Assembly (NCBI GenBank): GCA_003135135.1
Contig: PLDK01000010.1
Span: 103,676 to 167,675 of the forward strand
Length of the DNA: 64,000 bases
Direction of reading: 5' to 3'
From: Deltaproteobacteria bacterium
Lineage (GTDB): Bacteria > Desulfobacterota > Binatia > Binatales > Binataceae
Shown here: positions 12,108 through 56,588 of the stretch, in pieces
Numbering within the stretch: the first letter of the stretch is position 1
Layout of the letters: each line of letters opens with the position of its first letter
Translations under genes and position numbers: made by a program
The notes under the pieces: model-generated
What the model saw: only the letters and a program-made list of their open reading frames with translations
The model's database searches: none
Told to the model about the DNA's origin: nothing

Positions 12108-12275
12108 CGGCAGGGGTGACCCCTGCACCGCAGGGCTGAGCCCTGCACCCACCGTTAACGCCGCGCTCCGTTGTCGCGCGCGGCCTCTTAATACTGGCCA
12201 GCCGTGCCAACGGCCAGCGGTGACCCCTGCACCCAATGATAAGAGAAGATGCGGGACTTGGTCCCGGTTAGAAGT
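12108..12275. repeat. Mosaic palindromic repeat array B
   Basis: Modules in order: GCAGGGGTGACCCCTGC (12110-12126), GCAGGGCTGAGCCCTGC (12130-12146), the GCCGCGC...GCGCGGC hairpin (12160-12185), the TTAATACTGG linker, the GCCGTGCCAACGGCC module (about 12201-12215), half of the first palindrome, and the GCGGGACTTGGTCCCG module (12246-12271). The rest of the 12108-12442 gap holds no gene that I can see, only the leader of the next small gene. Confidence 0.85.
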
Positions 12276-14485: not shown

Positions 14486-14547
14486 GGGAATCGCATATAG
14501 CAGCACAGTGCCGCATCGGGACAGCGGGCGTGGGGAGGGGATCACTT

Positions 14548-14850
14548 AATTGAATGCGAAACCCGCCTGGGTTTCACACTTCCTTGGGCAGGGGTGACCC
14601 CTGCACCGCAGGGCTGAGCCCTGCACCCACCGTTAAGGCCGCCCGCCGTTGGCGGGCGCGGCCACTGCACCCGCAAGCGAGAAGACGCGAAAATCTGCGC
14701 AACGCATCTTTTCGCGACTACGCAATGGGCAGGCCCGTTGGCACGGGAGGTCAATATTAAGAGACCGCGCGCGACAACGGAGCGCGGCCTTAATACCGGG
14801 TGCAGGGCTCAGCCCTGCCAGCCGTCGCCACGGCCAGGGCTCAGCCCTGC
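14548..14850. repeat. Mosaic palindromic repeat array D (longest)
   Basis: Fills the gap between the crotonase and hisG. Order: GAAACCC...GGGTTTC hairpin (about 14558-14578), GCAGGGGTGACCCCTGC (14588-14604), GCAGGGCTGAGCCCTGC (14608-14624), GCCCGCCGTTGGCGGGC hairpin (about 14641-14657), a 43-base CGCGAAAA...TTTTCGCG hairpin (14681-14723), the GCGACAACGGAGCGCGGC module (14771-14795), a second GCAGGGCTCAGCCCTGC (14802-14818), GCCGTCGCCACGGCC (14821-14835), and a third copy of that palindrome ending at 14850 on the hisG stop codon. Confidence 0.9.
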
Positions 14851-15749
14851 TAGCCGATGATTTTGTTGAGCGGGAACTCGACGATGCCGACGGCGCCGGC
14901 TTCGAGCAGCTTGGGGAACAGTTCGCGCACCGTGTGCTCGGCGATGACGGTCTCAACCCCCAGCCATTCCACGCCCTTGAGCGCGGGAGAGGGGTAGAGG
15001 TGCGAGATGGTGGGGGCGGTGATCGACGGCAGCAGCGCGATCACTTTTTCGAGGTTGCCTTTGGCGACGTTCAACTTGATGAAGACGCGACTGTCGGCGT
15101 CGAGCGCGCCGCGAATCAGGATCCCGAGCTGGCGAATCTTGGCCTGCTTCCAGGGGTCGGTCCATGCCGCCGGATTGGCGACCAGCACGGGATTCGAGAC
15201 GAGCAATTCCTCGACGATGCGCAGTCCGTTGGCGCGCAGCGAGGAGCCGGTCTCGGTCACGTCGATGGCGGCGTCGATGATTCCTTCGGCGACTTTGGCC
15301 TCGGTGGCGCCCCATGAAAATTCAACTTCTGCTTTGACTTTGCGCTGGGCCAGGACTCGCGTGACGAACTGCACGAGCTCGGTGGCGATTCGCTTGCCCT
15401 GGAGGTCTTCGAGCCGCTTGACCGGCGAATCATTGCGCACGCATAGCACCCATCGCGAAGGCGTCAACGTGGCCTTGGCGTACACGAAGCTCTCGACCTG
15501 ATGGAGGGTCACGTTGTTCTCGACGATCCAGTCGCTGCCGGTGATGCCCGCGTCGAGCGAGCCGTCGGCGATGTACCGGGGCATCTCCTGCGGGCGCAGG
15601 ATGCGGCAACTGAGCGCGGGATCGTCGGTGGTCGGAATGTAGGAGCGCGAGCCAACCGTGATACGCCATCCGGACTTGCGCATCAGCTCGAGCGTCTGAT
15701 TCTCGAGGCTGCCCTTGGGGATGCCGAATTTCAGTACTTGATCAGGCAT
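14850..15749 (-). CDS. hisG: ATP phosphoribosyltransferase, long form
   Basis: First enzyme of histidine synthesis (ATP + PRPP). At 299 residues this is the long HisG form, with a C-terminal ACT-like regulatory domain (about 225-299) for histidine feedback, so no HisZ partner is needed. The N-terminal part starts FGIPKGSLENQTLELM, and the PRPP-binding segment DVTETGSSLRANGL lies at about 160-173. It follows hisI by 18 bases and the two form an operon. Its stop codon overlaps the last base of a palindromic module of array D. Confidence 0.95.
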   Translation of the reverse strand: MPDQVLKFGIPKGSLENQTLELMRKSGWRITVGSRSYIPTTDDPALSCRILRPQEMPRYIADGSLDAGITGSDWIVENNVTLHQVESFVYAKATLTPSRWVLCVRNDSPVKRLEDLQGKRIATELVQFVTRVLAQRKVKAEVEFSWGATEAKVAEGIIDAAIDVTETGSSLRANGLRIVEELLVSNPVLVANPAAWTDPWKQAKIRQLGILIRGALDADSRVFIKLNVAKGNLEKVIALLPSITAPTISHLYPSPALKGVEWLGVETVIAEHTVRELFPKLLEAGAVGIVEFPLNKIIG

Positions 15750-23337: not shown

Positions 23338-24736
23338 CAAGGTGCGCTCAGCGGCTACAGATTCCGATTCGGAACGGGCGGCGCGGGCCGACCTGGAAAC
23401 GATCTATCGCGCGGCAGTCGCGGCTGTAGATCCTGCCCGGCTCGTCGGGCGCGCGATGGACGGCGGATGCCTCGGCGCGGATCATGTTCCCGATCTGATC
23501 GCGGGCGCGTCGCGAGTTTGGATGCTGGCAGTCGGCAAGGCGGCGGCCCCGATGGCGCGCGAGATCGAACGCCGCATCGGCGACAAGCTCGCCGACGCGA
23601 TCGCTGTAATCCCAAAAGTTTCCCCTGCGACAACGGAGCAGGTGTCAATACTGAAAAAAGCCGCGACATCGGAGCGGGCTTTAATACTAAAAAAGAAGGG
23701 GCGGGTCCTCGCGTCAAGCCATCCTGTGCCCGACGAGTCATCCGAGGATGCGGCGCGTGCGGCGTGCGAAATGTTGCATGGGGCGGCGGCGGACGACCTG
23801 GTGATTGTCGCGCTGAGCGGAGGCGCGTCGGCGATGCTCACGTGGCCGGCCGAGGGGATAGCGCTGGCGGACAAAATCGCGGTTAATCAAGCACTGCTCA
23901 AAGCCGGCGCGTCGATTCGCGAGGTCAACGTCGTGCGCAAGCATCTTTCGGCCGTGAAGGGCGGACGGCTGATCCGCCATTGCGGCGGCGCGCGCGTGCT
24001 CGGGCTGATCCTGTCCGACGTGCCGGGCAACGATTTGGCGACTATCGGCTCCGGCCTGACCGCGGGTGACTGGAGCAGCTTCGGCGACGCGGTCGCGGTG
24101 ATGAAACGGCGCGGCATCTGGGGGCGCGCGCCCGAGTCTGTGCGCGCGTACCTGGAGCGCGCGATGGCGGGCGAAACCGACGCGACGGTAAAGTGCAACG
24201 ATCCGATTCTCGAACGCGTGACCAACGTGATCATTGGCGACGGCGAGGTTGCACTTGAGGGCGCCGAGCGGGCGGCGGCTGCGCTGGGGTATCATCCGGA
24301 TCGATGGATCGAGATGCGTGGCGAGGCCAACGACGTCGGCGTCGCGATTGCGAAGTCCCTGTGCGAGGTCAGGCGCGAGCGGGTATGCGCCATTGCAAGC
24401 GGCGAGCCTGTCGTGACGGTGCGCGGCGGCGGGCGGGGTGGACGCGCCCAGCAATGCGCGCTGGCGGCTGCTATCGAACTGTCGGAGACCGGGCCCGCGC
24501 GTCGAATCACGGCGTTGTTCGCGGGCACCGACGGAATCGACGGGCCGACTGACGCGGCCGGAGCATTCGCGTCGCCGGGCACGGTCGCCGACGGTGATCG
24601 CGCCGGAGTCAGCGCCGCGGCAGCATTGATCCGCAACGATTCGTATAACTTCTTTAAAGCGGTGGGTGGGCTGTTCGTCACGGGTCCGACGGGGACCAAC
24701 GTCAGCGACATTCTTGTCGCTCTGGTGAATTACTGA
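23321..24736 (+). CDS. gckA: Glycerate 2-kinase with an in-frame repeat insertion
   Basis: A 471-residue kinase of the GckA/TtuD (MOFRL) family: ATP-dependent glycerate to 2-phosphoglycerate. The GTG at 23321 overlaps rpiA; the ATG at 23285 would add 12 poor residues. Domains: DUF4147 (about 25-260) with SSHPVPDE and LSGGASAM, and C-terminal MOFRL domain with GRGGRAQQ and GTDGIDGPTDAAGA. Residues about 102-125 are an extra Lys/Thr-rich insert just before SSHPVPDE, where relatives run straight on. The insert is two tandem copies of a 12-residue unit, whose DNA matches a module of the dispersed intergenic arrays. Confidence 0.9.
   Translation: MSSSASKVRSAATDSDSERAARADLETIYRAAVAAVDPARLVGRAMDGGCLGADHVPDLIAGASRVWMLAVGKAAAPMAREIERRIGDKLADAIAVIPKVSPATTEQVSILKKAATSERALILKKKGRVLASSHPVPDESSEDAARAACEMLHGAAADDLVIVALSGGASAMLTWPAEGIALADKIAVNQALLKAGASIREVNVVRKHLSAVKGGRLIRHCGGARVLGLILSDVPGNDLATIGSGLTAGDWSSFGDAVAVMKRRGIWGRAPESVRAYLERAMAGETDATVKCNDPILERVTNVIIGDGEVALEGAERAAAALGYHPDRWIEMRGEANDVGVAIAKSLCEVRRERVCAIASGEPVVTVRGGGRGGRAQQCALAAAIELSETGPARRITALFAGTDGIDGPTDAAGAFASPGTVADGDRAGVSAAAALIRNDSYNFFKAVGGLFVTGPTGTNVSDILVALVNY
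23624..23695 (+). repeat. In-gene tandem copy of a dispersed repeat module
   Basis: Two 36-base units (23624-23659 and 23660-23695), 27 of 36 bases identical, encode PATTEQVSILKK and AATSERALILKK. Both carry GCGACA-CGGAGC followed by AATACT, the same core as the array D module at 14771-14795 and, in the other orientation, the hairpins in arrays B and F. The 36-base period keeps the reading frame. Confidence 0.8.
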
Positions 24737-56467: not shown

Positions 56468-56588
56468 GCAGGGGTGCCCCCTGCACCCAATGTTAAGGCC
56501 GCGCTCCGTTGTCGCGCGCGGCCCCTGCCGCCCACCGCGCAGGTGATTCTTCCTTCATGCCGTCGCCAAGGCCAGGGGTCACCCCTGC
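56468..56588. repeat. Mosaic palindromic repeat array F
   Basis: Order: GCAGGGGTGCCCCCTGC (56468-56484), the GCCGCGCTCCGTTGTCGC hairpin (about 56497-56523), GCCGTCGCCAAGGCC (56559-56573), and GGGGTCACCCCTGC (to 56588). It lies directly after the icd terminator. Confidence 0.85.

What the first reader, a model, noticed from the sequence alone, without database searches (positions are those of the whole stretch)
23624..23695. Dispersed intergenic repeat module inserted in frame and doubled inside the glycerate kinase gene
Two tandem 36-base units with the core of the array module at 14771-14795 (GCGACAACGGAGC, then AATAC) lie inside gckA and encode PATTEQVSILKK and AATSERALILKK. The flanking protein continues normally (SSHPVPDE), so the insert is tolerated. 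This is like the palindromic elements of Rickettsia that enter genes, but from an unrelated-looking family. It suggests the modules can spread into coding DNA without destroying it.
Basis: partly seen in the sequence, partly recalled or inferred. Interest (0 to 1): 0.82.

Follow-up and report, generated by a model that had tools for sequence, protein, structure and literature searches.

The report
Genome repeat captured inside glycerate kinase gene
A short hairpin-forming DNA repeat that is scattered between the genes of one small bacterial lineage once landed inside the glycerate kinase gene, was kept in frame and later doubled, and now codes for a floppy, probably harmless loop; this is a new example of something already known from Rickettsia and from REP repeats.

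Summary
Two in-frame 36-base units (27/36 identical) at 23624-23695 lie in gckA. Their core occurs 83 times in the 3.73 Mb genome (reversed control: 1). A profile built only from intergenic copies finds the in-gene copies of four species. In relative G002 (palsa_1089) intergenic copies carry the same TTAATACTGAAAAAA tail, linking gene unit and module. Exact modules occur in 5 of 41 family genomes; GckA carries the insert in exactly the four of these in which the gene was found, one clade (100/97). The insert lies between two strands, in the main disordered stretch of an otherwise confident model.

gckA is the only convincing gene-interior case among 83 exact copies, so entry into coding DNA is rare, unlike Rickettsia RPEs. 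One G002 copy appears to interrupt the start of an M20 peptidase gene out of frame, so insertion seems not frame-selective. No RAYT transposase was found in module-bearing genomes; what moves the repeat is unknown.

The parts
23342..24736 (+). gckA, glycerate 2-kinase type protein (GTG start at 23342 is the likely one; frame open from 23285)
   Evidence: start codon is inference
23624..23659 (+). in-gene unit 1, PATTEQVSILKK
   Evidence: R2 profile E 0.0097
23660..23695 (+). in-gene unit 2, AATSERALILKK
   Evidence: R2 profile E 1.9e-4
14763..14805 (+). intergenic module copy in the array, same core and CTTAATAC
14540..14852 (.). composite intergenic array of hairpin modules that holds this copy; absent at the same place in G006
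14622..14664 (-). diverged module in the same array (CCGCGCCCGCCAACGGCGGGCGGCCTTAA)
   Evidence: R2 profile E 1.6e-6
12143..12186 (-). intergenic module copy
56482..56524 (-). intergenic module copy

Best explanation
A roughly 40-base palindromic repeat, CCGCGCGCGACAACGGAGCGCGGCCTTAATACTGAAAAAA, was active in the common ancestor of a few species of this genus. One copy went into gckA between the strand ending in AVIP and the strand leading to HPVPDE, a linker of variable length. Four of the six frames of the module lack stops, so the gene could stay open. In the gene the stem lost bases (GCGCGG to GCGGG), the AATACTGAAAAA tail slipped or recombined, and the unit is double in this genome and its sister G001. 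The encoded 24-residue loop is probably neutral. Shown: homology, presence in one clade only, open frame, linker position in a model, turnover of intergenic arrays. Inferred: that the copy arrived by transposition or a similar copying process, and that the loop has no function. Unknown: the enzyme that moves the repeat.
For: Intergenic-only profile finds the gene copies. G002 has free modules with the same tail, TTAATACTGAAAA. Modules are limited to 5 of 41 family genomes; GckA carries the segment in the four of these that have the gene, one clade at 100/97; G003, G004 and the other aligned relatives lack it. AF2 model: pLDDT 90 overall, 57/49/67 over residues 91-120, strands 82-90 and 119-124 on either side. 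Four of six frames open. Array absent in G006 with 7 bases between the same flanks.
Against: No target-site duplication or exact empty gene was recovered, because the linker differs too much in G003 and G004. No candidate transposase was found. Unit 1 alone is only weakly matched by the intergenic-only profile. A cryptic function of the loop cannot be excluded.
Confidence: 0.85

Rival explanations
1. An ordinary intragenic tandem repeat grew by slippage in a variable linker, and its likeness to the intergenic module is chance or convergence.
For: The place is a variable linker, and copy number and tail length vary between species as slippage would give.
Against: The single unit of the basal species G002 matches the intergenic module over the stem, loop, CTTAATAC and tail; presence follows the module clade.
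Confidence: 0.05
2. The unit reached the gene by local copying (gene conversion or slippage) from a copy in the rpiA-gckA spacer about 250-300 bases upstream rather than by a separate transposition.
For: G001 and G006 have degenerate units in that spacer; the G006 spacer resembles the G006 gene copy (score 69) far more than the gene copies of other species (32-37).
Against: Neither the spacer of this genome nor the stretch upstream of gckA in G002 has such units; the G001 spacer shows no preference for its own gene copy. It may explain later changes rather than the origin.
Confidence: 0.15
3. The insert is adaptive: the loop or the hairpin in the mRNA changes GckA function or expression and is kept by selection.
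For: Kept in frame in four species.
Against: Sequence and length differ in every species; the model shows disorder; the two in-gene hairpins are only weakly more stable than shuffles, z -1.35.
Confidence: 0.08

Closest known systems
Rickettsia palindromic elements (RPE; Ogata et al. 2000, 2002, as reviewed in PMC10969869)
   Same: Palindromic repeat present between genes and, in frame, within a gene; peptide added without breaking the gene.
   Different: About 40 bases here against about 150; one convincing interior capture here against nearly half of copies in R. conorii; no sequence relation shown; another lineage.
REP elements inside genes (GTAG and CGTC REPs, PMC3733652)
   Same: 20-40 base hairpin repeats, many copies, mostly intergenic, singles and mosaics, a few in coding sequence with tolerated peptides in linkers.
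   Different: No GTAG or CGTC tag at the ends of the module; no RAYT (PF01797) gene in module-bearing genomes.
[quoted passage not shown]
   Same: Short, non-coding, palindromic, presence/absence between relatives.
   Different: No parent insertion sequence and no target-site duplication identified.
BIME-type mosaics of E. coli (from own knowledge)
   Same: Arrays built from different short palindromic modules with shared linkers (here GTATTAAG / CTTAAYAC).
   Different: Unrelated sequence; lineage-specific; no functional data.

Membership tests
Rickettsia palindromic elements | palindromic repeat found in frame inside genes as well as between them | tested here: met
   gckA in frame in four species, other copies intergenic
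Rickettsia palindromic elements | length about 100-150 bases and frequent insertion into reading frames | tested here: not met
   unit about 36-40 bases; one convincing interior case among 83 exact copies
Rickettsia palindromic elements | sequence relation to a described RPE family | not tested
   no RPE sequences were compared
REP / RAYT system | terminal GTAG (or CGTC) tag on the hairpin | tested here: not met
   aligned copies have no such conserved tag; definition from PMC3733652
REP / RAYT system | RAYT (Y1_Tnp, PF01797) gene in the genome | tested here: not met
   none in G000, G001, G002, G005, G006; one in G004, which lacks modules
REP in the loose sense | short hairpin repeat in high copy, mainly between genes | tested here: met
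   83 exact cores; consensus fold z -4.1
MITE | terminal inverted repeats shared with a full insertion sequence, and target-site duplication | tested here: inconclusive
   empty sites seen in G006 but arrays are composite and flanks too diverged for a duplication to be read; no search for a parent element with a transposase other than Y1_Tnp
Rfam families | match to a described RNA family | tested here: not met
   no match in the window at gathering scores
glycerate 2-kinase (GckA / TtuD) | DUF4147 and MOFRL domains with residues invariant among relatives | tested here: met
glycerate 2-kinase (GckA / TtuD) | enzyme activity | not testable with these tools
   needs expression and assay

The most novel reading that the evidence does not exclude
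A lineage-specific palindromic repeat family without a RAYT, unrelated to RPEs, inserts into gene starts and interiors and has seeded new protein segments, so that in-frame capture of hairpin repeats is a recurrent way for bacteria to gain peptide loops. In the basal species G002 the five old-type copies outside gckA all point tail-first at a gene start, and one of them appears to interrupt the signal-peptide codons of an M20 peptidase gene.
Probability: 0.2. Interest if true: 0.6.

Novelty: new member of a known kind. Interest (0 to 1): 0.42.

Why it matters
It gives an ordered case outside Rickettsia: gene without insert (G003, G004), one unit (G002), a varied form (G006) and a double unit (this genome, G001) on one supported tree, with the free-standing module still present in the basal species. 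That is a natural series for testing whether captured repeats are neutral or gain function. The concept itself is known from RPEs and intragenic REPs, so a specialist would be interested but not very surprised.

Tried and rejected
Chance match of a 13-mer: rejected by genome count, controls and the intergenic-only profile. Assembly artefact: rejected, since four separate genomes carry related but non-identical inserts. Ancient part of the family: rejected. RAYT-driven REP: no transposase and no tag. Other genes with interior copies in this genome: the long frames over other copies have no Pfam domain over the module; the one with a domain (Peptidase_C69) begins it well after the module; two of the 83 exact cores (L066, L067) lie in likely genes but lack the flanking module and look like chance matches. 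Known RNA family: none. A rough caller showed no simple orientation rule for the modules of this genome. No paper on repeats of this kind in this lineage turned up in the one search made under a guessed phylum name; the lineage itself was not determined beyond the record title.

Full report
What is there. Window 23624-23695 consists of two 36-base units, alike at 27 of 36 bases, that encode PATTEQVSILKK and AATSERALILKK. They lie inside an intact gene for a glycerate 2-kinase type protein (DUF4147, MOFRL; relatives of known structure 1x3l and 2b8n). The 13-base core of the units is that of the intergenic module at 14771-14783, with one base changed in unit 2.

It is not chance. The core occurs 83 times in the 3.73 Mb genome and its reversed control once. 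Nearly all of these copies share a longer module: a hairpin with arms like GGCCGCGC / GCGCGGCC around the loop GCGACAACGGA, followed by CTTAA and mostly by a second palindrome, GCAGGGGTCACCCCTGC. A representative folds well below its shuffles, z -4.1. In this genome only the gckA units join this core to the tail TYAATACTRAAAAA.

The missing link is in a relative. In G002 (GenBank PMOH01, Deltaproteobacteria bacterium isolate palsa_1089) five copies outside gckA read CGCGCGACAACGGAGCGCGGCCTTAATACTKAAAA, and its gckA reads CCGCGACCACGGAGCGGGCCTTAATACTGAAAAAA at the place of the insert. Gene unit and intergenic module are therefore the same element; the gene copies have lost a few stem bases. A profile built only from intergenic copies recovers the gene copies of G002 (7.2e-8), G001 (5.9e-7), G006 (1.6e-4) and this genome (1.9e-4 and 0.0097). 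In the 17 other relatives' gckA loci searched, the only hit at E up to 1 was one of E 0.07 on the other strand in G003.

History. Exact modules are in five of 41 family genomes (52, 23, 20, 14 and 5 copies) and in none of the other 36. GckA carries the segment in four of these five; the fifth, G005, has no gckA match. GckA of G003 and G004, of the same genus, has an unrelated linker there, as have the other relatives aligned. A tree from GckA without the segment makes the four carriers one clade (100/97), with G002 branching first, then G006, then this genome with G001, the last fork at 94/91. The simplest account is one insertion in their ancestor. The double unit is shared by this genome and G001; G006 has a degenerate, rearranged form; G002 has one unit plus a slipped tail and has lost the RVLAS residues beside it (read). 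Related tail units also lie in the rpiA-gckA spacer of G001 and G006 but not of this genome, so local copying may be part of the story.

Why it is tolerated. Four of the six frames of the intact module have no stop. In the AlphaFold2 model (mean pLDDT 90) the segment covers the main stretch of low confidence, blocks of 57, 49 and 67 over residues 91-120, between strands 82-90 and 119-124. This place is a variable linker in the family. The gene is open in all four species despite their different insert lengths. The model assigns a helix to residues 97-113, but at a confidence that makes this meaningless.

How often do modules enter genes? Of the 83 exact copies here, gckA is the only convincing interior case; other long frames across copies have no domain over the module. 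In G002 one copy lies directly after ATGAAGAGAACC of an M20 peptidase gene. As it stands the frame from this ATG stops after MKRTARDNGARP, whereas the flanks without the 38 bases read MKRTAIAVTILALLAVPRSALA, which looks like a signal peptide. Orthologues have a signal-like N terminus without the module. This looks like a disruptive insertion, so the process does not choose frames. That the joined reading is the original start is inference; the real start in G002 may be another codon.

Mobility. Arrays come and go: the array at 14540-14852 of the window is missing in G006, where 7 bases separate the same flanks, and other arrays differ in the same way. The moving enzyme is unknown: no Y1_Tnp transposase in the five module-bearing genomes, no GTAG or CGTC tag.

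Comparison. Rickettsia RPEs often enter genes in frame (review PMC10969869), and REPs inside genes have been listed for several species, with the remark that linkers or loops may tolerate them (PMC3733652). The present case works like these but is a separate, shorter family confined to one small clade, with rare capture in coding sequence. It is a new member of a known kind.

Noticed in passing
L273 (G002:C327) about 1496-1600; same place in L154 and L237: A module copy directly after ATGAAGAGAACC of an M20 peptidase gene; it breaks the frame from that ATG, and the flanks without it read as a signal peptide.
   Followed up: partly
L237, L238, L239, L241, L242 (G002): All five old-type modules outside gckA point their TTAATACTKAAAA tail at the start of the next gene, four of them within about 50 bases upstream of the start; a possible 5' UTR or promoter role.
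   Followed up: partly
window 14540-14852: Composite array of different short palindromes (CCCGTTGGCACGGG, GCAGGGGTGACCCCTGC, GCGAAAATCTGCGCAACGCATCTTTTCGC and others) joined by TTAAG/CTTAA linkers; whole array absent in G006.
   Followed up: partly
L099 about 1407-1489; L100 minus strand about 2913-2959: Degenerate module units in the rpiA-gckA spacer of G001 and G006; spacer and gene copies of G006 resemble each other, which suggests local conversion.
   Followed up: partly
L060 about 615-690 (G000:C37 near 177420): Another short direct repeat, GTCAGGCAACTGAAAGAACGTCAGGTAGCTGAAAAAATGTCCGACAACTGAAAAAATG, beside a core match that lacks the module flanks; looks like a different family.
   Followed up: no
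L053 of this genome against L218 of G006: At one orthologous intergenic site the two genomes carry different hairpin modules within the same frame of flanking modules, as if modules are swapped.
   Followed up: no
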